Shown here: piece after piece, positions 265 through 33,800 of the stretch | Numbering within the stretch: position 1 is the first letter of the stretch | Layout of the letters: each line of letters begins with the position of its first letter | NCBI GenBank assembly: GCA_020720115.1 | Contig: DYPD01000009.1 | Location: forward strand, 1 to 55,764 | Reading direction: 5' to 3' | Source: Thiomargarita sp. | GTDB taxonomy: Bacteria > Pseudomonadota > Gammaproteobacteria > Beggiatoales > Beggiatoaceae | DNA: 55,764 bases | Position numbers and translations under genes: made by a program | Notes under the pieces: model-generated | Database searches by the model: none | What the model was told of the DNA's origin: nothing | What the model saw: only the letters and a program-made list of their open reading frames with translations

Positions 265-948
265 GCGATTGGCACAGATTTCACCGCAAAAACACCGTAA
301 ACGCAGAAAACGCGAAAACAGCATGAATTGATTTGGTAGTGCTCTCCGCCCCGCCTATGCGGTGAGACCTTTATTTAGATCGCGGCTAACCGCCACAAAA
401 CTGGCGCTTAGCCGTTATTGTATTGCGAGATATTTATCTAGCCAATAGTTTAATCTGTATTTGACTTCCCCGGTATTGGAAAGCTGTGCTGACAGCGTTT
501 TGCAGTATCCATAGCTTCTCTATTCAAACCCATGATTTTTTACCATCTTCATCACCTATCTTAAACAGATAAGGTTTCCTCTCCTTCAATACTCGTGCAA
601 CCCCTTTGCTCCTTCATCGCCTTACCTTTCCAATCAGCACGCTACTACACAACATATTTAACATCTGAAAGTCATTTATTGTAACAAAGCTTTGTTCTTG
701 ACTGTTCAGGCTAAATGTGTCAAAATATATCAAAATAGAGGTGAATCTAATTAAACCATCAGAGAAATTAATCAAGGCATCATTGCATTCAGTAGTAATG
801 CACGCGTAGAAAAATAAGGTTATCCATATAGATGGCGCATTTTTTTCTATAACACAGCAACCATTCGTTTCTTTAATCGCAATTTTGTCGTAACTTGTTT
901 TAGAGTTTGGTTTCTAGCTTAGTCCTTCAACAATAGGGAATATTACAC
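265..948. other. Intergenic region, no gene seen; one strong hairpin
   Basis: No supported coding region on either strand. The one clear structure is an inverted repeat at 383-414: 13-bp arms (CGGCTAACCGCCA and its near complement, one mismatch) around a 6-base loop, followed by TTATTGTATT. It could be a weak terminator for the gene ending at 264 or a REP-like unit. The right half is AT-rich and would hold the promoter for the gene starting at 949, but I cannot assign a convincing -35/-10 pair. Confidence 0.5.
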
Positions 949-1749
949 ATGTCTATCTGCAAAAAATTGCTTACCTTTTGTTTGGTATTATCATTTGGCT
1001 TAAATGCCTTTGCAGAAGAAAAAATTGAGCTGCTGTTTTACATCGGCATTACGATGGTTAAACCCATTAATGAACTCGCCAAAAATTTTAAGAAAACACA
1101 TGATTGTGAAATCAAAATTTTGCAAGGTGGTAGTCAGGATTTGTACGATAGCTTGAAAAGCAGTCAAAAAGGGGATTTATATTTAGCCGGCTCTTTGTCC
1201 TATCGCAAGAAATATTTGCCTGAAGGATTACTATTAGATAGCGCATTTGTTGGTTATAACAAAGTCGCATTAGTTATACCCAAAGGAAATCCAAAGCAAA
1301 TTCCTGCCGATTTAAGCGTTTTAAGTGATAAAAAATATCGGGTAGTTTTAGGTAATACGGAAAGTGGAAGCATTGGCGATGAAACCCAAAAAGTGCTCAC
1401 TAAATTTGGCAATTATGAGGCAGCAATTTTAAATGCGGTAGAATTAGTACCAGATTCAAGAAATTTAACCAAAGCAATTAAGGAAAATGAAGCAGATGTT
1501 GGTTTGAATTGGTATGCAACAACTTTTTGGTCTGATAATAAACAATACGTTGAAGCATTGGTAATAGATGAGAAATATGCAGAAAAAGCAATATTAGTGC
1601 TAAATCTACTAAAAACCTCTAACTATCAAGAACTTACAAAAGAATTCATGAAATATGCAACTGCTCAAGAAGGAAGGGCAATTTTTCATAAATATGGTTT
1701 CTTAGACGACAATGATTTACGGAATTTTGATAACATCACAGTTGAATAA
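949..1749 (+). CDS. Periplasmic substrate-binding protein (molybdate/phosphate-type fold)
   Basis: 266 residues with a clear Sec signal peptide (KK, then a hydrophobic run, ending near NAFA|EE). The mature part resembles extracellular binding proteins of the ModA/SBP_bac_11 type: an early strand followed by a helix with 'INELAKNFKK', a G-G-S-Q-D loop where an oxyanion would bind, a hinge 'VALVIPKGNP', and a C-terminal 'ATAQEGRAIFHKYGF' typical of this family. A ligand cannot be named. It starts 12 bases before a hybrid sensor kinase gene and has no ABC permease or ATPase beside it, so a sensing role as the kinase's periplasmic partner is more likely than transport. The start ATG has a modest AGGGA upstream. 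Both genes are much richer in A+T than the genes from 6.4 kb on, which may reflect a different origin. Confidence 0.75.
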   Translation: MSICKKLLTFCLVLSFGLNAFAEEKIELLFYIGITMVKPINELAKNFKKTHDCEIKILQGGSQDLYDSLKSSQKGDLYLAGSLSYRKKYLPEGLLLDSAFVGYNKVALVIPKGNPKQIPADLSVLSDKKYRVVLGNTESGSIGDETQKVLTKFGNYEAAILNAVELVPDSRNLTKAIKENEADVGLNWYATTFWSDNKQYVEALVIDEKYAEKAILVLNLLKTSNYQELTKEFMKYATAQEGRAIFHKYGFLDDNDLRNFDNITVE

Positions 1750-1761
1750 AGACAATACCAC

Positions 1762-4413
1762 ATGCTATTAAAAGATACCGTATTTAGAAATCTCTTAGCT
1801 TTGCTATTTGTTTTTACAATGGGTTATGGTGCGTTAGTCACTATTCATTTGACGTTTAATCGTATTATCGAGGAATTTGATGAGCAGATTAAAAATGAGC
1901 AGGCAAGATATAAAATTGGCGAATATATTTTGAAAGAAATTAGCGATCTTGAAAGCAAGTTTTATAAACTTGCCACCCTCTTTAACGAAAATGCGGCACT
2001 GAATGTTAAGCAAGAAATATTGCAAGACATAGCTTTAATTCATGAAGCGATTGATGTCTTGGAAAACGGTGGAACTTTGCGGACTAGAATTGAACTAAAT
2101 CTAGTAGAAATCCATGAAGTTTTAGAAGAAGCAAGCTATAAAAAAACCAGTAATGGAAAGCAAGTCTTTGAGGCAATTGATCTAAAACCCAAGCTAGCTG
2201 ATCTGCAAAAAAAGTTAAATGAAATGATTAATATCATAAAACTCAAACAACGTATTGTTAATAACGAAGAAATTACCTCAGAAGAGAAACAAAAAAGTCG
2301 CTTAAAAATAGAAATTTTCTTTAAGAAGATTCCGAGCCATTTTATTAGGATGCGTGAAAACACCAGTCGCTTGTTATACGAAAGCAAGCAAAACAGGTTG
2401 TCTATTGAAAAAAATATTCAAAACCAGAAATTTTTTTATTTGAAACTAGAAGTCATTGTGACCTTCCTCGTTGCTATTATTGTTGTCGTACTAGGTTATA
2501 TTTTATCTCGCCAAATTCAACGCACCAGCAAACAGCTAAGAATTGCCTCTGAAGACGCAAAGCGTTTGGCATTTGAAGCCGATCAAGCAAATATTGCAAA
2601 ATCGCAATTTCTCGCTAATATGAGCCATGATATTAGAACCCCATTAAATGCAATTATTGGCTTTTCTGAATTGCTTTGTCATGCTCCCCTCCCACTTAAA
2701 GAACAAGAACAAGCACATATTGTTTCACGCAGTGCAAAAGCCTTATTGGATATTATCAATGATATTTTGGATATTTCTAAGGTAGAAAGCGGAAAATTTG
2801 AAATCGTTTCAGAACCTTTTGATGTGCGTGCATCGTTTGAGCAAATGATTGAATTATTCTCCGTTAAGGCAAAAGAAAAACACATCAGATTAATCTATAA
2901 TGCAGACCCCGCTATTCCTCCCTTTTTGATTGGCGACTTTATTCGACTTCAGCAAGTTTTTTCTAATCTCTTAAGCAATGCAATCAAGTTCACACCAGAG
3001 CGTGGCTGCGTTTGTTTTGAAGTTGCAATAGTAACGCTTGCTCAAAATAGTGTAGCATTGAAATTTTCAGTAACTGATAGCGGCATTGGAATTTCTACAG
3101 AACAGCAGAGCGCTGTGTTTGAAGCTTTCACGCAAGCAGATGGGAGTATTTCAAGAAAATATGGCGGGACTGGATTGGGTTTATCAATTAGTTTAAAAAT
3201 AGTAGAAATGATGGGGTCTAGACTGGAATTAGATAGTGAAGAAGGTCGAGGAAGTTGTTTTTACTTTTCTTTGGCATTCTCGCTTGCAAGCCATCAAAAA
3301 AAATCCGCACCTTCTCTTCAAGAAAAAAACTATCAATATGTTGTATTACCATTAGAATCTGATCGAGAAAAACTTAGAATCAGTTTAGTAAGTGACCTTT
3401 CAGAGGTAGGTAATATCGTTGAACCACATAATTTACAGTCAATCGAAAAGATCGATCTTTTGTTTTTATTTAAAGAGAATCTTTCAACGGCAAATCTAAA
3501 TAAACTGAAACAACGTTTTAACTGTCCCGTTGTTTTTGTAGGAGATAGCAGCGTTATTGGAGAATATCCAGAAATAAAATCTATTGTTGAACACTATTTA
3601 GATGTGCCTATTTATGGTGCTAAAGTGTTTAACCTTATTGAAAAAGCCTTCCATATAACACCACAGGAAACAGAGATAGATTATCTAACAGCACGGTTTA
3701 ACGGAAAAATTTTAGTTGCAGAGGATAATGAAAACAATCAAAAATTAATTGAAGTTTTATTGGGTAAGCTTGGGTTAGAATGTGATCTTGCTAATAATGG
3801 TGAAGAGGCATTGGAACTCTATCAAAAAAACACCTATGATTTGGTTTTTCTGGATGTGAATATGCCGGTAATGGATGGTGTAACAGCAGTAAAAATAATT
3901 AAAACATTAGATAAAACAGCAATTCCAATTATTGCATTGACAGCTAACACCATTAAAGGTGACAAAGAAAAATATTTATCGGCAGGAATGGATGATTATT
4001 TGTCAAAACCCATTATTTTTAAGGCGTTAGTTGAAGTGGTTCATCGTTATTTAAATGTGTCTACCATAACTGAACCACTGACTCCATTAGAAACCAACAG
4101 TATGAAATACAGTAAAGCTTTAACGATGCAACAATTGGAGCTTGATGAAGAAACAGTAGATATGTTATTGGATGGTTTCTTTGAAACGCTTGATCCTGCG
4201 TTAGAAAATTTGAGAACGGCAAGCAGATCGCAAAATCATTTGGAAATTTATAAGGCGGCGCATTTTTTGAAAGGCTCTTGCGCTAATTTGGCAATGTACG
4301 AGGCGGTGGATATATTGCAAGAATTTGAAACCAATGCAAGAGAAAGTATTAAAGCAACTTATGATCTAAAGTCATTGGAAAAGCTATTTCAAGAAATCAA
4401 TGCTAACCGATAA
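1762..4413 (+). CDS. Hybrid sensor histidine kinase (TM-periplasmic-TM-HisKA-HATPase-REC-Hpt)
   Basis: 883 residues. Membrane segment about 10-32, then a helical, charged periplasmic region (about 33-228), then a second membrane segment about 229-248. The HisKA motif NMSHDIRTPLNAI places the phospho-acceptor at His289. The ATPase domain shows the N box (SNLLSNAIKF, 401-410), G1 (DSGIGI, 439-444) and G2 (GGTGLGLS, 468-475). A receiver domain begins about 648 (LVAEDNENNQ), with phospho-acceptor Asp698 in LVFLDVNMPVMDG and the conserved Lys in LSKP. A C-terminal Hpt domain has His834 (AAHFLKGSCANL). This is a full phosphorelay up to Hpt; the final response regulator is not in the window. The helical periplasmic domain plus an adjacent binding protein recall TorT/TorS-like systems (inference). 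Low GC like its upstream neighbour. Confidence 0.92.
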   Translation: MLLKDTVFRNLLALLFVFTMGYGALVTIHLTFNRIIEEFDEQIKNEQARYKIGEYILKEISDLESKFYKLATLFNENAALNVKQEILQDIALIHEAIDVLENGGTLRTRIELNLVEIHEVLEEASYKKTSNGKQVFEAIDLKPKLADLQKKLNEMINIIKLKQRIVNNEEITSEEKQKSRLKIEIFFKKIPSHFIRMRENTSRLLYESKQNRLSIEKNIQNQKFFYLKLEVIVTFLVAIIVVVLGYILSRQIQRTSKQLRIASEDAKRLAFEADQANIAKSQFLANMSHDIRTPLNAIIGFSELLCHAPLPLKEQEQAHIVSRSAKALLDIINDILDISKVESGKFEIVSEPFDVRASFEQMIELFSVKAKEKHIRLIYNADPAIPPFLIGDFIRLQQVFSNLLSNAIKFTPERGCVCFEVAIVTLAQNSVALKFSVTDSGIGISTEQQSAVFEAFTQADGSISRKYGGTGLGLSISLKIVEMMGSRLELDSEEGRGSCFYFSLAFSLASHQKKSAPSLQEKNYQYVVLPLESDREKLRISLVSDLSEVGNIVEPHNLQSIEKIDLLFLFKENLSTANLNKLKQRFNCPVVFVGDSSVIGEYPEIKSIVEHYLDVPIYGAKVFNLIEKAFHITPQETEIDYLTARFNGKILVAEDNENNQKLIEVLLGKLGLECDLANNGEEALELYQKNTYDLVFLDVNMPVMDGVTAVKIIKTLDKTAIPIIALTANTIKGDKEKYLSAGMDDYLSKPIIFKALVEVVHRYLNVSTITEPLTPLETNSMKYSKALTMQQLELDEETVDMLLDGFFETLDPALENLRTASRSQNHLEIYKAAHFLKGSCANLAMYEAVDILQEFETNARESIKATYDLKSLEKLFQEINANR

Positions 4414-4569
4414 CATTCGGTCACGGTCACATAAGCAACAGGAAGCTGTGAAAGTATTCTGAAAATGACTGTTTTTTGATGATGGCGCAAAAAAACGCAC
4501 TTCATCCGCCTTAGTGTGTCCTGACAGCAATTCCCGTTTTAGCAAAAAAATCCATGTACAAGAGAATAC

Positions 4570-4662
4570 TATAGTAGGATTACTCAATAATTATGTTTTC
4601 ATAGATATTAAGTATATGATTTAATATATTTTTTATTATAAAAATCCAGTAATCAGACTATA
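4570..4662 (+). mobile_element. 93-bp MITE, copy A (most diverged)
   Basis: 93 bp from TATAGTAGGATTACT to its imperfect inverse (ccagtaatcagactata). Same length and ends as the copies at 5056, 6283 and 17751, but with more substitutions in the AT-rich centre, so it is the oldest copy. It begins and ends with TA, as expected for elements mobilised by IS630/Tc1-type transposases (family knowledge; no transposase is present here). Confidence 0.85.
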
Positions 4663-4774
4663 ACGTGTGTAAAGGTTACTCTGTATTGCAGACACAGTAT
4701 CCTCTTCCCAGAATAAATTAAGGGAAAAGAGGGAGAAATTATATTTTGACGCACTACAGAAAGATTTAGAAAAA

Positions 4775-4857
4775 AGGTAGTGGTGCATACAGGATGATAT
4801 TTATGCTTGGAAGCCGCGTTCTATCGTGACAAAACCATTCTTATTGCACCACTACCT
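4775..4857. repeat. Short element with 13-bp perfect terminal inverted repeats
   Basis: AGGTAGTGGTGCA at 4775-4787 is exactly inverted at 4845-4857 (TGCACCACTACCT), enclosing about 57 bp with no reading frame. A partial third match (accactacc) follows near 4923. It could be a very short non-autonomous element or a palindromic relic. Only one full copy is present in the window, so mobility is not shown. Confidence 0.5.
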
Positions 4858-5055
4858 AATTTAAATATTGCTCCAAAACTGGCTGGGTTAGGTTGAGTTG
4901 TAGACATGTTCATTCTTATAAAACCACTACCACCGCGCCGTCACCGCCATTATGCAATCCCCAAATATCGCATTGATGTTTATCACGGGTTTTCTTTTTC
5001 GTTCTTTCGCGCCGCGTCACGGTCATTCAGTCAGTAAGATGCAAATCACTCAATT

Positions 5056-5148
5056 TATAGTAGGATTACTCAATAATTATATTTTTATAATTATTAAGCA
5101 TATGATTTTATATATCTTTTATTTTAAATATTCAGTAATCCGACTATA
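5056..5148 (+). mobile_element. 93-bp MITE, copy B
   Basis: Same orientation as copy A. It differs from the reverse complement of copies C and D by only one or two bases. Terminal repeats are TATAGTAGGATTACTcAAT on the left and TATAGTCGGATTACTgAAT (inverted) on the right. The frame through it is open for all 31 codons and would encode a hydrophobic stretch. Confidence 0.9.
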
Positions 5149-5201
5149 CTTACTATCTTAGAAAAGACTCAAAAACATATGAAAATAATTCCAAAATCCA
5201 T

Positions 5202-5365
5202 TAGACTTGTTGCGACATAAATCCAGTAAAAATGCGGAGTTCGAGAATATAACTGACTCCAAATTTTTCAGATTTCAGCTAAGCCATTGATTTTTCATAG
5301 TCATCAAGCCAAAGCACTTTTTATAAGACATTGATTTTTCTTGTTTTATAGGCGCAACAAGTCTA
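5202..5365. mobile_element. Larger MITE (164 bp), copy 1
   Basis: Bounded by perfect 13-bp inverted repeats, TAGACTTGTTGCG and CGCAACAAGTCTA; the palindrome extends two more bases each side, consistent with a short AT target duplication. A second copy of about 166 bp lies at 54808-54973 with conserved internal blocks (ccagtaaaaatgcgg, atttttcagatt, cattgatttt). No reading frame. The ends resemble those of some IS5-group elements, but the parent transposase is not in the window. Confidence 0.85.
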
Positions 5366-5399
5366 ATGAAAAACTGACTTCCTCTTCTCCAATACTTAT

Positions 5400-5594
5400 T
5401 TATAAATACTTTTCACTCAAAACTTCCAGCAAAATTTCTTTATCGGTCTTAGTGGTCTGCACATAGTGGTATTCAGCCCCTAACGCCTTTTGTGTTTGAA
5501 TTAAGTCTATGTTTAATTCATCAGCAAACGGGACGGATACTAGCGCATTGGTGGGTAATGGGCAAGCTAATATTGTTTCGTGACTGGGTATCAT
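5400..5594 (-). CDS. Small hypothetical protein (64 residues)
   Basis: A 64-codon frame starting at ATG 5594. The product is mostly polar with a predicted helical C-terminus (KTDKEILLEVLSEKYL). I do not recognise it. It sits between the larger MITE and a broken Rpn gene, in a region of gene debris, so it may be the remnant of a longer gene. No clear ribosome-binding site was seen upstream of the ATG. Confidence 0.25.
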   Translation of the reverse strand: MIPSHETILACPLPTNALVSVPFADELNIDLIQTQKALGAEYHYVQTTKTDKEILLEVLSEKYL

Positions 5595-5717
5595 AATTCT
5601 CGATTAAAAGTCAAGTTTGTTGTTCATCGTTGTTCATCATTTCATGCTGTGTTTATTGGAACGAGGCAAGGCAATAAGGAAAATAAGCAAATTTCTACAT
5701 TTTTACAACATAACTCA

Positions 5718-6282
5718 TCAATCTTCCGCAAACATCTCATCTAAATTTTCCGCGGTCAACAACACTTCTGCCCAACTCATCAGTTGCTGAGTATCCGCCT
5801 GAATAATTTTTTCTTCAACAGAGACAGGAATAGTGCCAAATTTCGCCATGAGCTGGCGGCGTAAAATAACCGCCTGACCGTCGTGCATTCCCTGCTGCAT
5901 CCCTTGCTGCATTCCCTGCTGTAAAATTGCCTGATAACTGGGTAAATCACTTAATTTGAGTGTACTTAACATGGTTTTTTCCTCGTATACCAGGTGTTGC
6001 AAATCACGATTGCTGGAAAGTATTTCTAACATTTCCAGATAATTATGTAACTGGCGGGTATCATTTTGCAACAGATATTGTAGGCGCTGGACAATCGTGC
6101 GCACCACTTCACGCGGCGGTTTGCCTTTAAAGTCACATAAAATCGCCAGAATCAGTGCATCTGGCGTGGGCTGTTGGAGAAATTGACTGCAATCAAGCGT
6201 TTGCATGTTGATAAGGTGATAGTGGTAGCGCCAGCCATCATTTTCCACATGATCCGCCATTCGCAACGGCGGTTTGCCAATG
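5718..6282 (-). pseudogene. Rpn-family recombination-promoting nuclease/putative transposase, C-terminal part only
   Basis: About 188 codons ending at 5718, in frame with the adjacent 93-bp MITE. Recognisable features of the Rpn/PD-(D/E)XK 'putative transposase' family are YIGKPPLRM at the junction, then 'YHYHLINMQTLDCSQFL', 'DALILAILCDFKG', and the signature tail of repeated QQGM units before a helical C-terminus (MAKFGTIPVSVEEKI). The N-terminal nuclease core, which holds the acidic ExQ-type catalytic residues, is absent: the reading frame runs straight from the gene into the MITE at 6283 and then into nifA in another frame. An ATG inside the MITE could in principle start a fusion product, but it would lack the active site. 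Almost certainly non-functional as a nuclease. Confidence 0.8.
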
Positions 6283-6375
6283 TATAGTCGGATTACTGAA
6301 TCTTTAAAATAAAAGATATATAAAATCATATGTTTAATAATTATAAAAATATAATTATTGAGTAATCCTACTATA
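6283..6375 (-). mobile_element. 93-bp MITE, copy C, at the nifA/rpn junction
   Basis: Reverse orientation relative to copies A and B, nearly identical to copy D at 17751. One side is the 5' part of nifA (cut after the codons for FIGVPIY). The other is the 3' part of an Rpn gene (starting at YIGKPPLRM). Both fragments lie on the minus strand. A simple insertion would leave the same gene on both sides; here the two sides are different genes. Confidence 0.9.
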
Positions 6376-6744
6376 AATAGGTACGCCGATAAAAGGCAAA
6401 TCCAGATCGTAAAGTCCCAGTTTGCCGGCAAAACGCAGATCGCCACCGGCACTTTTGATAATGATGGTGGTTTTTTCTTCCAACACTGAGCCGATAATGC
6501 CCTCGCCTGGTCCATATCTGACTTCGCCAGGCGGCATTTTGCCACCCGCGTAGGCGGCGCTGAGGCGCAATTCTCCGTCAAAGCCCAGCAAAGTCACTAC
6601 GCCGTACTGCATTTCCGCGTACTTGTGCAGTTTTTGCAGCACCCCATCCAGGGCACTTTGCAGGTCAAGCGAGCGATTCAATACTTTGCCCACTTCAAAT
6701 AGGGCTTCAAGTTCGTATTCAATCAGTTCTGCGCGGGTTTGCAT
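6376..6744 (-). pseudogene. nifA: nifA 5' fragment: N-terminal GAF domain of the nitrogen-fixation activator NifA
   Basis: Starts at ATG 6744 (MQTRAELIEYELEALFEVGK), 20 bases after the nifL stop. An upstream ATG at 6852 lies inside nifL and is not credible. About 118 residues form the NifA-type GAF domain: 'EVGKVLNRSLDLQSALDGVL', then 'VRYGPGEGIIGSVLEEKTTI' and 'DLRFAGKLGLYDLDLPFIGVPI', matching the pattern known from Azotobacter NifA. The gene stops being nifA exactly at the MITE: the AAA+ sigma-54 activation domain and the helix-turn-helix are missing, and the frame ends a few codons into the element. The product could not activate transcription. Position directly after nifL supports the assignment. 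Confidence 0.85.
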
Positions 6745-6763: not shown

Positions 6764-8287
6764 TTAGAGTGAACTGGCGGGATGAATGGGGAGACGCACA
6801 ATAAAACGCGCTCCTTGATGATAATGGAGATCGAGATCAAGAGTGCCAGCATGGCTATTGACGATCTCTTGAGCGCGGGTTAAGCCTAGACCATTACCTC
6901 CATATTGGTGGCTTTTGTTACTAAAAAAGGGTTCAAAAATACGAAATCTGAGTTCATCGGGAATGCCGGGTCCCGTGTCGCTGATTTCTGCACACAGGCT
7001 TTCGTCCTGGATACGGGTGTGAATACTCAATAGCGGCGAACGCTGTTTGCGGTTAGTACACATGGCATCAATGGCGTTATCAATTAAGTGCTTAAATAAA
7101 CTGCGTAAATCACCTTCCAAGCCATTAATGGAGGGGTGGCCAACCCACCACTATGCCTTCAGACAACAGACGTTCAGTGCTTAAAATGAGCACATCACGC
7201 AGTAAATCATTCAAATTAACCGGTGAGAATGCTTGGGGTTTTTGTGGGGGCACGCTGTAACCTAGGGTTTCCAGTGCCGTTTGTCCTGCGTGCAAAGCGG
7301 TTTTGAGCAAGTCTTGTAAGGGATCGGCGGGTTTTCCGGCATTGCGGCGTTCCAGCAAACCCAGCGCGGCTTCCAGCATATTAAAGGGCACTTGGAATTG
7401 ATGAATGGCGCCACGCAGGCTTTCGCGTAAACTGTCCGCCACTTCGTTTTCTGCCATCATGGCGCGTAAGGCATTGATGCGCACGGCTTCTTGCTGCTTT
7501 TTTAGGTCTGTAATATCTTTGGCAACCAGCAACAAATGCGTGCGTTGATTGCCGTCAAAAAAGGCTTCTGCTTCTGAGGCTTTGACGTTAATCCAAATGC
7601 CTGAACAGCTAAACCAGCGCACTATACCTGGCTGGCAGCATTCCACCTGCACTTCCTGAATATCCATGCGCCCGCCGTTATTTTTCAAGCTAAGCCAGCG
7701 CGTACCGATGCGTTGGCGCAAATGCTCCAAAAATACCAGGGCTGGCTCATTTTCTGGCGAATGTTGAATGAGTTTTTGGTACTCATGATTAGCCAGCACC
7801 AGTTGTTCGTTTTCATCCAGCAAGGCAATCACCACAGGCGCAGTATCTACAACGGATTCAATCAGTTGCTTTTGTGACTGAACTTGCTGCTGTAGCCGAT
7901 GAAAATCGGTAATGTCGCGGTGCATTCCTAGGTAATAGGCGGTCTTGCCATCGTTATCCAGCACGGGCGCTATGGTCATTTCTGCCAAATAACGCTCACC
8001 ATCCTTGCGCCGATTGACCAATACCCCAGTCCAGGATTTTTGCTGCAACAAGCGCCCCCACAGGGTCTTGTAGATAATTGACGGGGTTTTTTTATCCGAC
8101 AAAATGGATTCGTTGTGCCCGACCAGTTCGCCGACGCTGTAGCCCGTCACGCGCTCAAAAGCTGCATTGGCATACAAAATACAGGCATTCAAGTCGGTGA
8201 TGGAAATCGCTACTTCGGATTGTTCAACGATTTCGTTAAACAAACTGGGGGTAGCAGGGGAGCGGCGGTGGCTTTTTGTGCTTCCAT
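6764..8287 (-). pseudogene. nifL: nifL, redox/nitrogen-responsive anti-activator of NifA, with two frameshifts
   Basis: Reconstructed product of about 500 residues with the NifL layout. PAS1 (FAD-binding type) has 'ITDLNACILYANAAFERVTGY', 'NESILSDKKTP' and 'TLWGRLLQQKSWTGVLVNRR', then 'YYLGMHRDIT'. A second PAS follows, then a linker with 'RINALRAMMAENEVADSLRE' and 'AIHQFQVPFNMLEAALGLL'. The C-terminal ATPase domain has the N box LIDNAIDAM, G1 DTGPGIPD and G2 GGNGLGL. Two lesions are visible. Near 8255-8259 a C5 run separates the ATG at 8287 (preceded by GAGG) from the PAS frame by one base. Near 7135-7140 a C4 run shifts the frame just before the ATPase domain, so the first long frame ends at 7125. 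Function of the intact family: flavin-based sensing and inhibition of NifA. Confidence 0.88.
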
Positions 8288-8304: not shown

Positions 8305-8592
8305 TTAATCTTCGTCATCATCATTATCGTCGTCTTGATCACGACGTTTTACCGTGTTGGGATCAGCAATCAAAGCGCGGTAAATTTCCACTCGATCATG
8401 TTCTTGCAGCACGGCATTCAGTTTGGAAAGCTTGCCATAAATCCCCACTTTCTGCTGATCCAAATCTAATTCTGGGATTTTTTCCAAAATACCAGAACGC
8501 TCAATGGCTTCGCGGACAGTGCTCCCTTCTGGCACATCTAAACGCAACCAGAGTTGGCGCCGCGGATCGGCGTAAGCGACTCCTATGTTCAT
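8305..8592 (-). CDS. rnfH: RnfH family protein (ubiquitin-like fold)
   Basis: 95 residues, start ATG 8592 with a TAGGAGA-type site upstream. The sequence has the RnfH pattern: 'VAYADPRRQLWLRLDVPEGS', 'TVREAIERSGILEKIPELDL', 'KVGIYGK' and 'LQEHDRVEIYRALIADP', then a basic patch and a strongly acidic tail (DDDNDDDED). RnfH-type proteins have a beta-grasp fold and are encoded at the end of rnf clusters linked to nif genes in Azotobacter and Rhodobacter relatives; their role in the complex is unclear. It lies between rnfE and nifL on the same strand with short gaps (24 and 17 bases) and appears intact. Confidence 0.88.
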   Translation of the reverse strand: MNIGVAYADPRRQLWLRLDVPEGSTVREAIERSGILEKIPELDLDQQKVGIYGKLSKLNAVLQEHDRVEIYRALIADPNTVKRRDQDDDNDDDED

Positions 8593-8616: not shown

Positions 8617-9309
8617 TCAAGCGGTGCGCATGTCTAAGAGGGGCTGTTCTGTGACTTGCGCTTTAGCTTTTTGCTGGGCGCGTTGGTCTAACACCTGTTT
8701 GCCTGCCATCAAAAAGCCCATTACCAGGAACCCGCCAGGCGGCAAAATCATGATCAAATAGCCGCGATAATCTTGAATCAGGGTTAATTCCATAAAGCCA
8801 AAGGCATCCCCTAGCAGCAACGAAGCGTTGGCAAACAAAGTGCCGCTACCGATAATTTCTCGAATTGCGCCTAACACCACCAAAACAATAACAAAACCTA
8901 AGCCCATCATTAAACCATCCAGGGCAGCAAGATTGACCGGATGGCGTGAAGCAAAGGCTTCAGCACGCCCCAGAATGAAGCAATTGGTTACAATCAGCGG
9001 GATAAATAAGCCCAGCACCTTATATAAATCATGTAAAAAAGCATTAATACTCATATCCACAACGGTCACGGTCGCCGCAATCAGCAAAATAAACACTGGA
9101 ATTCGCACTTCGGGCGTCACTATGTCTCGCACCAGAGAAATAATCACGTTAGTCCCTACCAGCACTACCAGCGTTGCCAGCCCCATACCCAAGCCATTGG
9201 TGGCGCTTGTTGTCACTGCCAAGCTTTGACACAGTGCTAAACCTTGCACTAATACCGTATTGTTATCCCATAAACCTTGACGCATCAAAGTTTTATAATT
9301 CATTTCCAT
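8617..9309 (-). CDS. rnfE: Electron transport complex subunit RnfE
   Basis: 230 residues, intact. About six membrane segments and the RnfE/RsxE signatures: 'GLWDNNTVLVQGLALCQSLAVT', 'NGLGMGLATLVVLVGTNVIISLVRDIV', 'RIPVFILLIAATVTVVDM', 'LGLFIPLIVTNCFILGRAEAFAS' (the conserved IVTNC) and 'LPPGGFLVMGFLMAG'. RnfE is an inner-membrane subunit of the Rnf complex, which links NADH-ferredoxin electron transfer to ion movement; in diazotrophs it helps supply low-potential electrons to nitrogenase. The cytoplasmic tail (QRAQQKAKAQVTEQ) is variable. It sits between broken rnfG and intact rnfH. Its partners D and G are disrupted here and A, B and C are not next to it, so whether a complex can form is open. 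Confidence 0.95.
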   Translation of the reverse strand: MEMNYKTLMRQGLWDNNTVLVQGLALCQSLAVTTSATNGLGMGLATLVVLVGTNVIISLVRDIVTPEVRIPVFILLIAATVTVVDMSINAFLHDLYKVLGLFIPLIVTNCFILGRAEAFASRHPVNLAALDGLMMGLGFVIVLVVLGAIREIIGSGTLFANASLLLGDAFGFMELTLIQDYRGYLIMILPPGGFLVMGFLMAGKQVLDQRAQQKAKAQVTEQPLLDMRTA

Positions 9310-21893: not shown

Positions 21894-24800
21894 TTAGCGG
21901 GGTAAGATTTCTCTGTTGCGCAGCGACCCGCCCGCTATGCCCAATAAGAGCAGTGATAACAACAACATTGCCCATTCTGACAGCGTCGGTATAGGCGCTG
22001 GTGGCTGCGGCGGTACTACCGTACCTGTGCCGCCCGTAGCTGTACCACCAGTACCACCGGTAGCTGTGCCAGTGCGCAGGGTGACCAGGTGATCTTCTAC
22101 TTCGCCGTCGGGTGCAGGACCTGTCGGGGGCAAGCTAGGTTCTGTGCTACAACGGAAGCGGGCATAGGTGCCTCCTAATTGCGCGGTTTGTGGCACGTTG
22201 AAGGTCAGTGCATTCACCCCTGAAGAGGCGGCTAATGTCATCCCTGTCGCTATTTGCTCGCCCACATCGTTCCAATCCCCATCTCGATTGAAATCAATCC
22301 AGGCGTTCAAAAAGCACACATTCGGCGTTGGTACTCGTACATTGATAGTACCGGGCTGACCAGGAATCAAATCAGTCACCAGATCAACGCCGTCATCAAA
22401 GTCATCTGTGCCACCTGGAACAGTCGTACCACCACCAGGCACAGTCGTTCCACCACCAGGCACAGTCGTACCACCACCAGGCACAGTGGTACCACCGCCA
22501 GGCACAGTGGTGCCGCCGCCAGGCACAGTGGTACCACCGCCAGGCACAGTGGTGCCGCCGCCAGGCACAGTCGCACCGCCGGAGACGCTGTTACTTGGAT
22601 TATCCGGGTCATCCGGGTTCACGCCTGTTCCCAGGAATACGCCCTGTTTCAGCGCGTGCCAAGCCCCACGATCCTGCAAACTCGTTGGATAGGGCGGCGG
22701 TGCATCGCCAAAGTCGCCTATGGGTTTGGTTGCAATCACCAGGCGGTAGTCTTCCACTTCGCCGTCGGGTGCGGGTCCTCTTGATCCCAAGCCCCGCTGT
22801 GTGCTGCAACGCAAGCGGGCATAGGTGTCTACACCTGCTACAGCGGCGGTGTCTGGTACGCTGAATTCAAGCGTATTGACATTTTGCGGCAAGGCGACAT
22901 CAGTAAAGATTTGCTCGCCTGCATCCTCAAAGTCACCGTCAGCATTGAAGTCAATCCAACCTTGTAGTAGGCAAGCGCCCGGTTGTGAAACCGCTATATC
23001 CACCGAGACAGTACCGCCAGGGGCGAAATTACCACGCGCCGCGACAACACCGTTCGCATCGCTGTTACCCGCCTGGTCGTCGCCGCTGGCTGCCGCGTCA
23101 GGGCGTCCGTCATTTTCTGCATCTACACCCGTGCCTAGGTGAATACCAGCAACTACTGTGTGACGTGCGCCATCAGAGCCAACTTTTGTGCCGTAGCTAT
23201 CAGGTGCGTCACCAAAGTCGTCAATGCCAATAAACATCAGACTGTAATCTTCCACTTCGCCATCAGGCGCTGCACCGCTAGAGCCTAAGTTGGGCTGAGT
23301 GCTGCACCGCAAACGGGCATAAGTGTATGTTCCAGTTTCGACTTCTGCTGGGACGCTGAAGCTGAGTGTATTCAATTTATCCGGCAACGGCTGATTGCGG
23401 AAAATTTGCTCACTGCTGTCATTAAAATCACCATCGCTATTGAAGTCCATCCAGCCTTGCAGCAGGCAGGCATTGGGTGCGGATACGGCAACGACTAAAG
23501 TGGCTTTTGTGCCTGGGCGCAAATCAGTTAAACCGCTGACTATGCCGTTTTCGTCTGCTGTGCCCACGCTGTCGTCGCCTTGCGCATCCTGCCTTGGCTG
23601 CCCATCGTTTTCCGCGTCAACACTGTTGCCTAAGTAAATATCGGGGGTAATAGAATGTTGCGCACCATTGTTGGCTTGCGTGCTGTGATAAGAATCAGGC
23701 GCATCACCATAGTCCACTAGGACGGCGTTCTGAATCTCGATTCTATAATCCTCAACTTCACCGTTAGGCGCTTTGCCGCTGTAACTCAAATCCGGCTGAG
23801 TGCTGCAACGGAAGCGGGCGTAGCTGCTACCTGCCTTGGCGGTTTCTGGTATCTTGACCGTCAAGGTATTGGTCAAAGCAGGCAACGGCTGATTGCGGAA
23901 AATCTGCTCACCACTATCAGCAAAATCACCGTCACCATTGAAGTCCATCCAGGCTTGCAACAAGCACACACCAACTGAAGGCACTGTCACCTGAAGGGTT
24001 GCCGTCTGCCCACGAGTCAGATCGCTGGGAAGCTGTACGCCATCTTCATCCGCCAAACCCTGGGCATCATCGCCATTCGCGCCAACACTGGGCTGTCCGT
24101 CAGCATCCGCATCCAGACGGCTGCCCAAGTGAACACCAGGAACAATTTCATGCCAAGCGCCATTATTCGCCAGTGTGCTCTGGTAGCTATCGGGTGCATC
24201 GCCAAAATCACCTTGAGGATTCAAGCGCAACAGATAATCTTCCACTTCACCGTCGGGTGCGTCGCCAGCAGAACCCAGTCCGGCTTGAGTGCTACAGCGC
24301 AAACGGGCGTAAATGTTGGCATCTACCACCGCAGTTGCTGGAATCTTAAAGCTCAAGGGCGTGCGTGTACTCGGCAATGCAGCGTCAGAGAAAATACGCT
24401 CGCCACTGTCTGCGAAATCGCCATCGGCATTGAAGTCCATCCAGCCCTGCAACAAGCAGGCATTAGCAACGGGTGTGGCAATGGTCAAAGTCACAGTACC
24501 CTCAGGTGACAACAGCCCTTGAATCGCCACAATGCCGTCCTCGTCTTGTTTAGCATTGCGATCATCGCCATCTGCGCCAATGCTGGCTTGACCCTCGTTT
24601 TCGGCATCTACGCTTGCACCCAAGTAAATATCTGCTTTTATTAGGTGACGTGCGCCGCCGCTGGCTTTTTGTGTCTTGTAGCTATCAGGCGCGTCGCCGT
24701 AGTCAAACAGGCTGCTGTCTAGGACTCTCACTTGATAATCTTCAACTTCGCCATCAGGTGCGTCCCCTTGTGCGGGCAAGTTAGGCACTGTGCTGCAACG

Positions 24801-27800
24801 GAAGCGGGCTGCGGTTAAGCCAGCTTGCGCTGTGGCGGGTAAGGTCACGGACAAGGTGTTGCTGACCGCTGTTAGACGTTGATTGAGCAAGATTTGCTCT
24901 TGGTTATCCGCAAAATCCCCATCGCCGTTGAAGTCCATCCAGGCTTGCAACAAGCACACTTCTGGCGCAGGCACGCTGACTTGCAGAGTAGCTGGCTGTC
25001 CGCGCACCCAATCGCCGATAAAGCGTATGCCGTCTTCGTCATCCTGCCCCGCGTTGTCGTCGCCTAACGCATCGCTACTAGGCTGTCCGTCGCTTTCTGC
25101 ATCTGCGTTATTCCCTAAGTGAATGCCAGATACTAGGGTGTGACGTGCGCCATCGCGTGCAGTTGTAGTGCCGTAGCTGTCTGGCAAATCGCCGTAATCT
25201 TTTTGCAATGCCAAGACTACAGGTAAGCGATAGTCTTCGACTTCACCGTCAGGTGCATCACCGGTTGAGGTCAATCCGGCTTGAGTGCTACAACGGGCGC
25301 GGGCATAGACAAAGGCTTGGGTAAGAGCGTCTGGCGCACTGAAGTTGTAGACCAGCTCGGTGCTATTAGGCTGCAAATCGGTGATTAAATGCTCACCGCT
25401 GTCTGCCCAATCGCCGTCGCCATTGAAGTCCATCCACAGGTTGAATAAGCAGACTTTGGCGGCGGGGAAGCGCAGCGCAACGCTGTTGCTTGTTCCCGCG
25501 AATAGGACGCCGTTGCTAAAGACTAAGCCGTCTTCGTCATCCGTGCTGCCCAAGTCATCGCCATCTGCTAACGCTGTGGGCTGACCGTCGCTGTCGCTGT
25601 CAACCTGAGCGCCCAGGTGAATGCCGGGTACTAGGATATGACGCGCACCTTGTTCACTGAGGCGGGTCGGATGCCCGGCTGCGTCGCCATAGTCGTAGGC
25701 TGTTTGGCTCAGTTGGATGGCATAGTCTTCTACTTCGCCATCTGGCGCAGGTCCCACTGCACCTAAGCTGGGCTGAGTGCTACAACGGAAGCGGGCATAG
25801 CTGTCGCCTAAGCTGGCTGTACTGGGTACGTTAATGCGCAAGGTATTGACTGTGCTGGTTAGACTTTGGTTGAGCAGTATTTGTTCGCCTGCGTCGCTAA
25901 AGTCGCCATCACGGTTGAAGTCCATCCAGGCATTGAGCAGGCAGATTCCGGCACGGGGGACGTGCACGGTAAGCTCGGCGGCTTGTCCTGGCACAAGCGC
26001 ACCAATGCTCACGCCGTCTTCATCATCGCGGCTATCGCTATCATCTGCATCAGCACCTGCACTGGGTTGAACATTGGCATTGGGGTCTATCTCATCACCC
26101 AAACGAATGCCATCTTTGATGATGTGAGAGGCGCCATTATTGCTGGCGGTGGTGCCGTAGCTATCGGGCGCATCGCCATAATCCAGTGCGGGTGTGATGA
26201 GGACGCGGTAGTCTTCGACTTCACCGTCTGGCGCATCGCCAGCAGAACCCAGCCCGGCTTGAGTGCTACACCGTAAGCGAGCATAGGTGTCTACGCCTGT
26301 TGCTGCGGTGAGCGGAACATCAAAGCTGACTTGAGTTTGCTGGGTAGGCAGAGCAACGTCGCTAAAGATTTGCTCGCCGTTATCGCTAAAGTCGCCATCA
26401 GCATTGAAGTCCATCCAGCCTTGTAACAAACACACATTGGCTGCGGGTGTGGCAATGGTCAGGGTGACTTTGCCACCGGGTGACAGCACGCCAAGACCGC
26501 CCACTATGCCATCTTCGTCGGTTTTTTCATGGGTGTCATCGCCATCTGCGCCAACGCTGGCTTGCCCGTCGTTTTCGGCATCTACGCTTGCACCTAAGTA
26601 AACGCCTGTTTTTATCAGGTGACGTGCGCCGCTGCTGGCTTTTTGCGTCTTATAGCTGTCGGGCAAGTCGCCGAAGTCATAAGCTTCGCCGACAATCTGA
26701 ATCGCATAATCTTCCACTTCACCGTCTTTTGCTGCGCCATTGGGCAACAAGCCCGTTTGGGTACTGCAACGGAAGCGGGCATAGCTGCCACCAGCACTGG
26801 CATTTTGTGGCACCATGAAGCCCAGATTATTGATTGTTGAAACCAGACGATGATCTGTGAACAGCTGTTCGCCAAGGTCTGCAAAGTCGCCGTCGCCATT
26901 GAAATCCATCCAAAGTTGCAAACGGCAGACTTCAGGCGTCGGAATTTGTACTTCAATCTGTGCGAGCTTGCCTTTCTCCAGCGGCGTCAAGAAACGCACG
27001 CCGTCTTCGTCATCCGCCGCACCATTGAGGTCATCGCCATTGGCTAAGGCATTGGGTTGACCCTCGGTTTCAGCATCTTCACCAGCGCCCAGATAAATGC
27101 CGGTCACTAGGGTATGACGCGCACCATCACTGGCAAGCAGCGTTGCATAGCTGTCGGGCAAGTCGCCGAAATCCAGCGTCAATTGGCTTGCGGGCACAAT
27201 GTTGACGAGATAATCTTCCACTTCCCCATCCGCTGCTTCACCGGTCTGGCTCAAGCCTGGCGTGGTGCTGCAACGAAAACGTGCGGCTGTTTGTCCGGGC
27301 AACGCATTGGCGGGCACTTGTAAGGTCAGCGTATTGCTGAGTGCTGGCAATGCTTGGTTAGTGAAAATTTGCTCACCCGCATCTTGCCAATCCAAATCGC
27401 CGTTAAAGTCCATCCAAGCGTTTAACAGACAGACATTCGCCGTTGGCACAGTCACCACCAGCGTTGCCGCCCTGCCTGGCACTAAGTCAGAACTAAAGGT
27501 TACGCCGTCTTCGTCGTCGCTGACTGCTACGTCATCGCCGTCTGCTTTGGCGCTGGGCGCTCCGTCTGTTTCCGCATCAATTTCATTCCCCAAGTGAATG
27601 CCGGAGCGAATCACATGGCTAGCGCCCTGGTCTGCTTTCAGCGTTGGGTAGCCTGTTGGCGCATCGCCGAAGTCATACACCAAGGCTTGCGCTACTTGCA
27701 GCGCATAGTCTTCCACTTCACCATCAGACGCTGCACCGGACGCTGCAAGAGCAGTTTGCGTGCTGCAACGTGCTCGCAGATACAGCAAGTCTTTTGGCAA

Positions 27801-30800
27801 GGTAGCGGGCAAAGTAACAGTCAGCGTATTCAACAAAGCAGGTAAAGTGCGATCTGCAAACACCTGTTCGCCCGCATCATTCCAATCGCCATCGCCATTG
27901 AAATCCATCCAAGCACTGAACAAGCAGACATTTGCCGTCGGTACTTTCACTTCCAAGCCCAGCACAGTGTTGGGCGCAACAGCAGTCGCCCCGCCCGCAA
28001 AGGTGAAGCGAATGCCGTCTTCGTCATCCACCCCATTCGTATCGTCACCCACCGCCATCAAATTAGGCTGACCATCGGCATCTGCATCCACACTCGCGCC
28101 TAGATAAATACCTGGGATAATCTGGTGTTTAGCCCCATTTTCAGCCGCCAAGGTCGGATGGCTTGCCGCATCACCCAAATCAAACTCCGCCGCTGAGAAA
28201 GTAATAGGATAATCCTCCACTTCACCATCGGGCGCTTCGTCACGATAGCTTAAGCCGCTTTGCGTACTGCAACGGAAACGCGCATAGCTGCTGCCTGGTT
28301 TAGCAGTGGCAGGCACTTTGACCAGCAAAGCATTGCTCAGCGCAGGTAACGGCATATCTTTAGCGATCTGATTACTGGCTTCACTGAAATTGCCGTTGCC
28401 TTCAAAATCCATCCAAGCACTTAAAACACAGGCATTTGCCGTCGGCACGCTAATGGTCAAAGTAGCGGACTGACCAGGAATCAGCGCCGGAATACTCACG
28501 CCGTCCTCATCATCATTGCCATCGTTATCATCACCGCCAGCAGTGCTAGAAGACTGACCATCCGCTTCCGCATCCACGCCCTTACCTAAATAAATCCCCG
28601 CTTTAAGCAGATGACGTGCGCCACTATGCGCCAGCATGGTTTGATAACTGGTCGGCAAATCGCCAAAATCCTTCGGCACTAAGATAGTCACCTGATAATC
28701 CTCGACCTCACCATCAGTCGCATAACCCGTAGGCTGTACTGCCAGAGTGGTCGTGCAGCGGAAACGCGCATAGGTTTTACCCGGCAACGCCGTTATAGGC
28801 ACATTCAGGCGCAAAGTATTGACCAATGCAGGCAAGGCAGTGTCCTTAAAGATGCGCTCATCAGCATCATTCCAGTCGCCATCCGCATTGAAATCCATCC
28901 AAGCCGAAAGTGCGCAAACATTGGCTTGCAGCACTGTCACCTGAATCTGTGCGGGTTTACCTGGCACTAAAGCTTGCAGGAAGGTCACGCCGTCTTCGTC
29001 ATCATCCGCTCTGGTGTCATCGCCCAAAGCCGCGTCGTCGGGTGCGCCGTTGCGTTCCAAATCCACTTTAGCACCCAGGAATACACCCGCTTTGAACTTA
29101 TGGTTTGCGCCGTCATCCGCCAACAAAGTGGGGTAAGGTGCGGGCGCGTCACCCAGATCAAGTTCAACCGGCGCATCGAGAATCGTCACCACATGGTCTT
29201 CCACTTCACCATCCAGCGCCAAGCCCGTTGACAAATCACCGCCTTGCGTAGAGCAACGGAAACGCGCATAGGTTTCGCCCAGTGAAGCATCGCCCGGAAT
29301 CGTCACGCTCAGGTTATTCACGCCAGCGGTCAAGGCGCGGTCAGTGAAGATTTGCTCTTTACTATCAAACACGCCGTTTTGGTTGTAATCCACCCACGCA
29401 TTCAGCTTGCAAGTGCCAACCGCCGCCGCCGTGACTTTCAGCGCACCGCTTAAAGTCCGTTGCCACTGTCCGACAAACTCAACGCCATCTTCGTCATCGG
29501 CACAGCCACCCATATTCACGGTAGGCGTAGAACCGCCCGCCGCGCCCGTATCATCTGCTGTCGCGCCCGTATCCTGTTGCGTTCCCGCGTCAGAATCCAC
29601 ACAAGCCCCTAAATAAGGCGCGTTGGTCACACCCAAAATATGCCGTGCGCCATTGTTAGCATCCGTAGTGCTGTAATCCGCCTTGCCATTGCCAGCGGCG
29701 GCATCAGGTGCATCGCCGTCATCCGTCGCGGTTAAGCTCGGATCAGGCAAAATTTGAATGCGGTAATCTTCCACCTCACCATCGGCTGCCAAACCGACGG
29801 GCGTATCACCGCCCGCCGTAGAGCAACGGAAACGCGCATAGGTATAACCCAACACCGCAGTAGCCGGAATCGTCGGAGTTAAAGCCTGCGTACCGCTGGT
29901 CATGTCTCCATTAGTGGCGATTTGCTCACCCGCGTCAAAAGTACCGCTTTGATCATAATCAATCCACGCATTCAGCTTACACGCCGTAGCAGAACTACTG
30001 GTCACTGTAATATTCGCAGTTTTACCTTCCACCAACGAAGCCGCAACGAAAGTCACGCCGTCTTCGTCACCGTTAGCCCCGCAAGTCCCATTCACCTTAA
30101 GATTGACCGCCCCTGTATAGGCTGTTGCACCATCATCTGCGGTTGCCAGGGTGTTTTGCGCTGTGCCGTTATCCGCATCCGCACAAGCACCCAAATAAGG
30201 CGCGTTAGTCACATTGAGCAAATGCGCCGCACCATTATCCTGCGGACGGGTTTGATACTCCGCCGCGACACTGCCTGCGGGTGTACCACTGGCGGACGCA
30301 AAACCTGACAGGCTATCGGGCGCATCGCCATAATCCAGAGACTCAATGGGATTTGGCTGAATAATCACCGCGTAATCCTCCACTTCACCGTCAGCGGCAT
30401 AACCATAAGGCGTATCATTGCCCACACTCGAACAACGGAAACGGGCGTAAGTCGTGCCCAGCGCCAACTCCGTACTGGCAGGCACAGCAACCGACAAATC
30501 GTGCGTACCTACTGTCATGGATTGATTAGTCGCAATTTGCTCACTGCCGGCAAAATCCCCGTTACCATTAAAATCAATCCAAGCATTCAGCTTACAAGTA
30601 CCACCAGTTACCGTGATTTTCAGCGTATTACCAATCGTGGTATTACTCACCAAGGCATACGGGAAAACCACGCCGTCCTCGTCGTTTGTGCAGCTTGTGT
30701 TGCTAGAGTCATCTGCTGTTGCGCCAACGCCCTGCAAACTACCGCTATCAACATCCACACAAGCCCCTAAAACAGGCGCATTGAGTACACCCACCTGATG

Positions 30801-33800
30801 CGAAGCTCCGCCGTCTATTGCAGTCGTGCGATATTTACCGGTCGTCCCGGTGCCTGCACCCGTATCAGACGCATCGCCAAAATCCGCATTCGCTGAAGGC
30901 TGAATCAAGACCTGATAATCCTCCACCTCACCATCCGATGCGGGCCCTGTGGGACTATCACCGCCCAACGCCGTCGGCGAACTACAACGGAAACGTGCGT
31001 AAGACACGCCCAAAGTCGCTGCTGCGGGAACGGCAATGGTTAAGCCTGAAGTGGAAGCAGCAGGGGCTAAACTGACAGCACCAGCACCCTGAATCACATA
31101 TTCATCGGTCGTATTTTCAAAAACGCCATTTTGGTTAAAATCTACCCAAGCATGAACCACACAGTTAGTCGCAGGTGAGACATCAACAGAACCCGCTTTA
31201 ATACTGATACTTGGAGTTGCACCCTGCACCAAACCCGCAGGCAAGGTCACGCCGTCCTCGTCGTCACCAGTATTTGCACAAGTACCGCGAGTACCCGTAC
31301 CCGTTGCCTTATCCGCATCTGCGGCTAGATTTTGCAAAGTACCACTATCCGCATCCACGCAATCACCCAAATACGGCGCACCCGCAACCAGCGCGTGACT
31401 AGCACCATTGTTATCGCGTTGAGTCGCGTAATTACCCACACCGACGCTACCAAGGGTCACATTGGGCGCGTCGCCATAATCCAAGCTATTAGCGACCGCT
31501 TGAATAGCGACGCGGTAGTCTTCGATTTCACCATCAGGCGCACCGCCGCTGGGCGACAAATTACCCGCCGTGCTACACCGGAAACGCGCATAGGTCAGCC
31601 CGTTTTTCGCATCGGCTGGCACAGTAAAGCTCAAGTCTTTGGTTTCTATGCTCCAAGAAACACTATCAGCAATCTGTTCACCGCTGTCATCCCAATCGTT
31701 ATCTTGGTTAAAGTCTATCCACGCATCCAACTTACAAGCTGCACCGCTGACCTCAACGCTGACTGTTTGCGCCACACCTGCATACAAGCTGGTGGGAATA
31801 GTCACACCGTTTTCATCATCAGGCGTACCCGTCGTGTCATCCCCATCCGCACCTACACTCGGCTGACCGTTGGCTTCGCTGTCAATGCCATCCGCACCCA
31901 CCGCAGCACCCAAACGCGGACCGACGGGATTAATCGCGTGATACGCGCCAGTATTGGCATTCAACGTAGGATATGTCGCAGGCGCGTCGCCATAATCCAA
32001 ATTCACCGCACCGGCTATCGTCACCAAATAATCCTCGACTTCACCGTCGGGAATTGCCAACCCATTTGCCGTGCCACCATAAGGCGTTAAACCGCCCGCC
32101 GTTGAACAACGGAAACGCGCATAGCTAACGCCGTTACTGATACCGCTACTTGGCACCGTGAAATTGAGATTATTCACACCCACGCTTAAAATTTGCTCGG
32201 TGGCAAACACAGTTTCGCTGCTTTCCCATTCGCCATCGCGGTCATAATCAATCCACGCATTCAGCTTACAGGTAGCGGGTACGGTGATTTGAATCGGCAA
32301 AATGACAGTATTAAGAGGTGTAGTCGTACTAGCCGTGATAAGCGTCGGCAACACCACGCCGTCTTCGTCGTCGCCGCCCGTGCAAGTGCCTTTCGTGGTC
32401 GGTGTACCGCCAGCAGGTACACCCGTATCATCCGTTGTCGCGCCCGTGCCTTGCTGTGTGCCATCATCAGAATCCACACAACTGCCTAAAAACACCGTAT
32501 CGCTCAAACTGTGATACGCGCCCGCGTCACTGGCTTTGGTTTGATAATCCGCATCCGTCGCGGGTAAGCTTGCAACAGCAAAACCTCTTGCCGCATCCGG
32601 CGCATCGCCATAATCCAACGCCACATCTGCTGGATTCTCCATGATAAGCACTTGATAATCTTCCACTTCACCATCGTTGGCTAAACCGGTTGGCGCATCG
32701 TCACCGCTGCTTGAACAACGGAAACGGGCGTAAGTGTTGCCCAAGGTCGCGCTGCTTGGGATAGTAATATTCAAAGCGGTATTAGTGCCTTTAGCCGCAG
32801 TCGCATTGGTCAGGACTTGCTCGTCAGTGTCCGTAAACACACCGTTTCGATTGAAATCAATCCAGCCATTCACTTTGCAATCCGTCAGTCCGCCGCCTTC
32901 TTTCAGCGTAATACTCACAGTGCTGTGGCGAATTAAACCAGTGGGCAAAGTTACGCCGTCTTCGTCGTCGTTGGCTGTTGTGCAGCCCCCAACAGACACG
33001 GTTACGGGTGTGCTTAAACCACCCGCCCCGCCCGTATCATCCGCCGTCGCGCCCACACCTTGCTGATCCCCCGTATCCGAATCCACACAAGACCCCAAAT
33101 AAGGCGCGTTGGTCACACCCAAAATATGCCGTGCGCCGTTATCTGCTGCTCTGGTTTGATAGTCACCAGGCGTTACACCTGAAGCGGCGGTTGTGCCTGA
33201 AGTTGCGTCTGGCGCATCGCCGTAATCAGTGGCAGTCAGCAACGGATTGGGCTGAATCTGCACGCGGTAATCTTCCACCTCACCATTGAGCGCAGGACCG
33301 ACGGGGCTATCGCCACCTTCACCCGTTGCGCCCGTACAACGGAAACGGGCGAAGGTGTAGCCGGTTTTCGCTGTGGTGGGGATGTTGAAATTGAAGTTTT
33401 GCGCTCCGCCTACCGTAGTGACAGTCGTAGTCGTGTCAGTCAAGATTTTCTCGCTGGCATCCCACACGCCATCCTGATTGAAATCAATCCAGCCATTCAC
33501 TTTGCAGTCTGCAATGGTGGCGGTGATGGTCAGTGAGGATTGCGGCGTAGGTGCTGTAATGCCTGCTCCCTGCATCAAATCCACATCATTGAGGTTGGTT
33601 ACGCCGTCTTCGTCATCATTACCTATGCAAGTGCCTTGTCCTGCACCGCCTGTATTGCTGTCATCCGCCACCGCTGTGCCATCTTGCAAACTGCCGCTAT
33701 CGGCATCCACACAATCGCCTAAGTAGGGGCCAGTGATGATATGCACTGCGCCATTGTTCGCGTTTAGCGTGGTGTAATCGCCCGGATTAGTACCTGCTGT

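What the first reader, a model, noticed from the sequence alone, without database searches (positions are those of the whole stretch)
5718..6744. nifA and an Rpn gene joined through a MITE: recombination between element copies
The 93-bp MITE at 6283-6375 has the 5' part of nifA on one side and the 3' part of an Rpn gene on the other, both on the minus strand. Simple insertion would leave one gene on both sides. Exchange between a MITE in nifA and one in an rpn gene, giving a deletion or an inversion, explains it. If an inversion, the reciprocal piece (rpn 5' part-MITE-nifA 3' part) should still exist and the switch could be reversible.
Basis: inference. Interest (0 to 1): 0.68.

Follow-up and report, generated by a model that had tools for sequence, protein, structure and literature searches.

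The report
MITE-joined nifA and rpn gene fragments
A small jumping element present in about 70 near-identical copies sits where the front of a nitrogen-fixation regulator gene meets the back of an unrelated gene, most likely because two copies recombined and deleted the DNA between them, in a genome whose nitrogen-fixation genes are already breaking down; this kind of damage is known, and an assembly error is not fully ruled out.

Summary
A 93-bp MITE (6283-6375, TA at both ends) joins the first ~123 codons of nifA to the last ~187 codons of an Rpn/DUF4351 gene, both on the minus strand. The genome holds roughly 70 near-identical copies. At least 13 other copies inside genes are clean insertions (removing the element restores one frame); this is the only assessed genic copy joining two genes. 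Both parent genes have a TA at the broken codon, so each half looks like an ordinary MITE insertion. The missing halves (nifA AAA+/HTH, rpn N-terminal part) were not found in the 99.5%-complete genome. That fits a deletion between two directly repeated copies and speaks against an inversion with a surviving reciprocal piece and, less directly, against a chimeric join. nifL is frameshifted and nifH and nifD each carry an in-frame TGA, so a reversible nifA switch is unlikely. Caveat: contig ends suggest an assembly with k=55, below the element's length, so the join depends on read pairs not seen here. MITE-MITE recombination deletions are documented experimentally (Pseudomonas MITEPsy2), and MITE-disrupted genes are known in Beggiatoaceae. 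Verdict: junction confirmed, mechanism partly as proposed, new instance of a known kind, modest interest.

The parts
6283..6375 (+). 93-bp MITE (TA + core 6285-6373 + TA), one of about 70 copies; carries T at position 51, as do only two of the other aligned copies
6376..6744 (-). 5' fragment of nifA (N-terminus and truncated GAF domain); its frame stops inside the MITE at 6355
5718..6281 (-). 3' fragment of an Rpn/DUF4351 gene, lacking about 100 N-terminal codons
6764..8243 (-). nifL, split by a frameshift near 7120-7150 into two frames
8305..8592 (-). rnfH
8617..9309 (-). rnfE
5056..5148 (-). second copy of the MITE, inverted relative to 6283-6375; one flank shared with C31:7970-8062, the other not
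4570..4662 (-). divergent MITE copy (87-88%); a near-empty site exists in the paralogous C31 segment
17751..17843 (+). another MITE copy in the window, direct orientation

Best explanation
Two copies of an IS630-like, TA-targeting MITE had inserted into nifA (at the Tyr codon after GVPI) and into an rpn gene (at the Tyr codon of YIG). Homologous recombination between these two near-identical, directly repeated 93-bp copies deleted everything between them: nifA 3' part, intervening DNA and rpn 5' part. One MITE now joins nifA 5' to rpn 3'. Shown: the junction, the TA at each cut, the absence of both missing halves from the assembly, clean insertions elsewhere. Inferred: that the two genes once lay on one replicon in the same direction, and that the event was homologous recombination. 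The event fell in a lineage where nifL, nifH and nifD also look broken.
For: Both families carry TA at exactly these codons in relatives or paralogues: nifA ATTTAC/ATTTAT in L071, L083, L086, L088, L089; rpn ATTTATATAGG, GTACATCGG, TTTACATAGG. Both complementary halves are absent from a 99.5%-complete genome. At least 13 other genic copies, by my count, restore one frame on excision, with Pfam domains running across the joint for SLATT_2, ammonium transporter and LRR, so this copy is the exception. Other MITE-edge exchanges are seen: a 312-bp MITE-spacer-MITE2 unit 100% identical in the window (5056-5367) and C31:7970-8281 with different outer flanks, and a C31 segment homologous to the window up to the MITE target and not beyond. 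The rpn fragment has native composition.
Against: No relative with the pre-deletion order was found. nifA in the same-genus genome G001 is intact but is followed by psd, not rpn. The assembly appears to use k=55, so the join across a 93-bp repeat is not proven by k-mers. The other two MITE-edge exchanges could themselves be assembly effects. Absence from the bin is not absence from the organism; the shortest contig seen is about 5.2 kb.
Confidence: 0.68

Rival explanations
1. Assembly chimera: the assembler walked from nifA into a MITE and out into the rpn flank of another copy; in the cell both genes carry simple MITE insertions.
For: Eight or more contigs start or end inside a MITE about 50-55 bp in, and three contigs end exactly 53 bp + TA outside one, which I read as k=55, below the 93-bp repeat. 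The genome is a 185-contig set with 4.36% contamination. The 312-bp unit appears in two contexts.
Against: The other assessable genic copies are joined correctly. A chimera predicts that both missing halves exist; neither is in a 99.5%-complete assembly. A 93-bp repeat is normally spanned by read pairs.
Confidence: 0.2
2. Inversion or translocation between MITE copies, with the reciprocal rpn 5'-MITE-nifA 3' piece surviving and the state reversible.
For: An inverted MITE copy lies 1.1 kb away (5056-5148) and many copies exist in both orientations.
Against: No nifA central/HTH part and no orphan rpn N-terminus anywhere in the assembly; sequence beside the 5056 copy is neither; nifL frameshift and nifH/nifD stops.
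Confidence: 0.05
3. nifA and rpn were first fused by illegitimate recombination at a shared ATTTA microhomology, and a MITE inserted later at that TA.
For: Excision leaves one open 356-aa frame, and related genes of both kinds can carry ATTTA at the joint.
Against: A later insertion at one given TA is improbable: about 73 copies over about 200,000 TA sites, roughly 4e-4. An open shared frame is expected by chance about one time in three.
Confidence: 0.04
4. Transposase-mediated one-sided or aberrant transposition of the MITE produced the adjacent deletion, without a second copy in rpn.
For: The MITE family looks recently mobile (near-identical copies; inferred empty alleles at three contig ends).
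Against: An adjacent deletion would have to end by chance at a TA of rpn; the only DDE_3 match in the assembly is a broken remnant at C48:6777-6902.
Confidence: 0.03

Closest known systems
MITEPsy2-mediated deletion in Pseudomonas savastanoi plasmid pPsv48C (PMC6354349)
   Same: Recombination between two directly repeated MITE copies (228 nt) deletes the DNA between them (8.3 kb, frequency 3.8e-3 when the toxin-antitoxin systems are neutralised).
   Different: There it was observed experimentally on a plasmid; here it is inferred from one assembly, with a 93-bp element and breakpoints inside two genes.
MITEs of Candidatus Thiomargarita nelsonii (Beggiatoaceae; PMC4853749)
   Same: High-copy MITEs, one family with TATAG ends and a suggested IS630 link, interrupting metabolic genes; gene disruption or fusion near the hupL MITE.
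   Different: Sequence relation to this MITE was not tested; no nifA-rpn junction was seen in the passages read.
IS630/Tc1-mariner-type MITEs in general
   Same: TA at both ends of the copies, short TIRs, no long ORF, strong hairpin (-23.4 kcal/mol).
   Different: No intact parental transposase was found; only a degenerate DDE_3 remnant.

Membership tests
MITE (miniature inverted-repeat transposable element) | short, non-coding, multi-copy, near-identical | tested here: met
   93 bp; 40 copies listed in a capped search, 146 TIR matches in the genome; nearly all aligned copies differ at 0-3 positions
MITE (miniature inverted-repeat transposable element) | terminal inverted repeats | tested here: met
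   TAGTCGGATTACTGAA / TAGTAGGATTACTCAA
IS630/Tc1-type MITE | TA target site duplication | tested here: met
   aligned copies have TA at both ends; excision to one TA restores frames in many genes; near-empty site in C31 for the 4570 copy
IS630/Tc1-type MITE | TIRs shared with an autonomous IS630 transposase | tested here: inconclusive
   only a broken DDE_3 remnant at C48:6777-6902, next to a MITE; the IS630-type element in G019 nifA has other ends
MITE-MITE recombination deletion | different genes on either side of a single element copy | tested here: met
   NifA on one side, Rpn/DUF4351 on the other
MITE-MITE recombination deletion | intervening halves lost from the genome | tested here: met
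   (in the assembly; absence from the organism itself cannot be tested here)
MITE-MITE recombination deletion | ancestral order with two MITE copies seen in a relative | not tested
   the search of 40 related genomes was for nifA; the rpn side and MITE copies were not searched across them, and no second genome of the same species is held
invertible DNA switch | reciprocal junction present | tested here: not met

The most novel reading that the evidence does not exclude
MITE copies act as recombination substrates that repeatedly rewire this genome in a mixed population, and the nifA-rpn junction coexists with cells that keep intact nifA, so that diazotrophy is a polymorphic, MITE-governed trait.
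Probability: 0.06. Interest if true: 0.6.

Novelty: new member of a known kind. Interest (0 to 1): 0.27.

Why it matters
It is a clear sequence-level case of MITE copies removing a master regulator, with each kind of product readable in one genome: clean insertions, a probable deletion scar, and other MITE-edge exchanges. Together with lesions in nifL, nifH and nifD it suggests a Beggiatoaceae-like lineage (my inference) losing nitrogen fixation while nifK, nifE and nifN still look intact. It also shows how MITEs longer than the assembly k-mer can mislead MAG-based claims.

Tried and rejected
Looked for nifA 3' part: the best other sigma-54 activators match TIGR01817 only from about residue 175 on, without the NifA N-terminus, all far below its cut-off; C69 is a contig-end fragment of another activator. 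Looked for an orphan rpn 5' part: none. Considered a foreign-DNA chimera: the left 6.3 kb looked odd (tetranucleotide r 0.62-0.75 with own contigs), but the anomaly is confined to a low-GC island at about 600-5700, and the rpn fragment and bases 1-500 have native-like GC, so composition does not argue against the junction. Considered local inversion between the 5056 and 6283 copies: flanks do not fit. Searched for a second copy of the flank of contig C100 to see its empty allele: only C100 itself. A genome-contig scan with the nifA fragment gave only distant hits. One call failed for wrong frames and was replaced by reading the ORFs; NifK, NifN and NifE are named by eye from the translations.

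Full report
Observation. The sequence at 5718-6744 is as described. The element at 6283-6375 is 93 bp with TA at both ends. On its right, minus strand, lies the NifA N-terminus: TIGR01817 positions 2-117, E 5.9e-18, and a truncated GAF domain. The NifA frame runs a few codons into the element and stops. On its left, minus strand, lies the C-terminal 187 aa of an Rpn-type protein with DUF4351, aligned over its length with one intact paralogue at 50% identity and over its first 135 residues at 52-60% with two others. nifL, rnfH and rnfE follow upstream of nifA, so this is a genuine nifLA locus.

The element. The genome (3.86 Mb, 185 contigs, 99.5% complete, 4.4% contamination) lists 40 copies in a capped search, and 72+74 matches to the terminal repeat against none for the reversed pattern, so roughly 70 copies. 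Nearly all aligned copies differ at three or fewer positions. The window copy shares a T at position 51 with only two of the other aligned copies, C15 and C124, both clean insertions. The aligned copies carry TA at both ends. A paralogous segment on C31 offers a near-empty site for the divergent 4570-4662 copy. The only DDE_3 (IS630-type) match in the assembly is a broken remnant beside a MITE on C48, so the parent transposase is not identified.

Is this copy special? Removing the MITE and one TA restores a single frame in at least 13 other copies by my count (L002, L003, L006, L009, L017, L021, L023, L025, C14:15511 (L149), L145, L153, L155, L158), and in L007 apart from a nearby frameshift. 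For some of these a Pfam domain clearly runs across the joint: an ammonium transporter, SLATT_2, LRR. Several were judged by frame continuity only. The window copy is the only assessed genic copy with two different genes on its sides.

Where the genes were cut. In relatives the NifA codon after GVPI is often Tyr (ATTTAC, ATTTAT), and the Rpn paralogues have Tyr in YIG (TAC, TAT). Both therefore offer a TA at the exact break, and the joint equals a MITE insertion in nifA on one side and a MITE insertion in rpn on the other. This also explains why excision gives an in-frame nifA-rpn ORF: both cuts lie at the same codon phase. The in-frame fusion is most simply a coincidence of that phase.

The missing halves. 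No locus matches the NifA central and C-terminal parts above the family cut-off; the other matches are sigma-54 activators starting near position 175 of the model. The only Rpn N-termini of this subfamily belong to three intact paralogues. A deletion predicts both absences. An inversion or a chimera predicts both presences. In a nearly complete genome this favours deletion, although bins can lack short or tangled contigs (the shortest contig I saw is about 5.2 kb).

Assembly. Contigs C35, C42, C71, C114, C137, C46, C48, C51 and C52 begin or end about 50-55 bp inside a MITE, and C100, C139 and C82 end exactly 53 bp plus TA outside one. I read this as k=55 with branching at the MITE boundary; this is inference, not a record of the assembler. 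It means the MITE is longer than the k-mer and joins rest on read pairs. It also suggests empty alleles at three sites in the sampled population; a search for one of them found no second copy in the bin. The chimera rival therefore keeps a fifth of the weight.

Other MITE-edge exchanges. Window 5056-5367 (MITE, 53-bp spacer, a second ~166-bp repeat family) is 100% identical to C31:7970-8281, with different sequence outside both ends. A C31 segment is homologous to the window up to the TATA where a C31 MITE sits, and not beyond. These fit MITE-edge recombination but could also be assembly effects.

Context. nifL is frameshifted near 7120-7150. nifH and nifD on C106 each have one in-frame TGA. 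The ORFs I read as nifK, nifE and nifN are open throughout. Related genomes also show damaged nifA: an IS630-type ORF interrupts it in G019, G024 has a frameshift and G007 a TGA. Loss of nitrogen fixation under relaxed selection is the simplest reading; a nifA on/off switch is not.

Comparison with the known. Deletion by recombination between two direct MITE copies was shown for the 228-nt MITEPsy2 (PMC6354349). High-copy MITEs interrupting genes are described in the giant sulfur bacterium Thiomargarita (PMC4853749). The present case works the same way and is a new instance, not a new kind.

Noticed in passing
G000:C106:4729-5553 and 3136-4353 (L101): nifH and nifD each carry a single in-frame TGA in otherwise intact frames, and nifK lies on a different contig (C139).
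   Followed up: partly
window 600-5700: Low-GC island (about 0.32-0.37 against 0.48) holding a solute-binding-protein-like ORF and a hybrid histidine kinase, between stretches of native composition.
   Followed up: partly
window 5202-5367: A second repeat family of about 166 bp, MITE-like, with more than 20 copies in the genome; termini near TTAGACTTGTTGC.
   Followed up: no
L088 (G019:C5) 1501-3902: In a relative, nifA is split by an IS630-type transposase ORF with both halves present: a simple insertion.
   Followed up: partly
G005:C102:19780-19834: 55 bp 100% identical to the MITE in another genus of the family, of k-mer length; possible transfer or co-assembly.
   Followed up: no
G000:C100, C139, C82 ends (L112, L111, L114): Contigs end exactly 53 bp + TA outside a MITE, suggesting MITE-free alleles in the sampled population.
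   Followed up: partly
L023 (C79:29772-29864): A MITE copy interrupts an ammonium transporter gene.
   Followed up: no
window 22000-40300: Long run of degenerate repeats, spaced mostly about 490-660 bp, which look like repeats of a large coding region.
   Followed up: no
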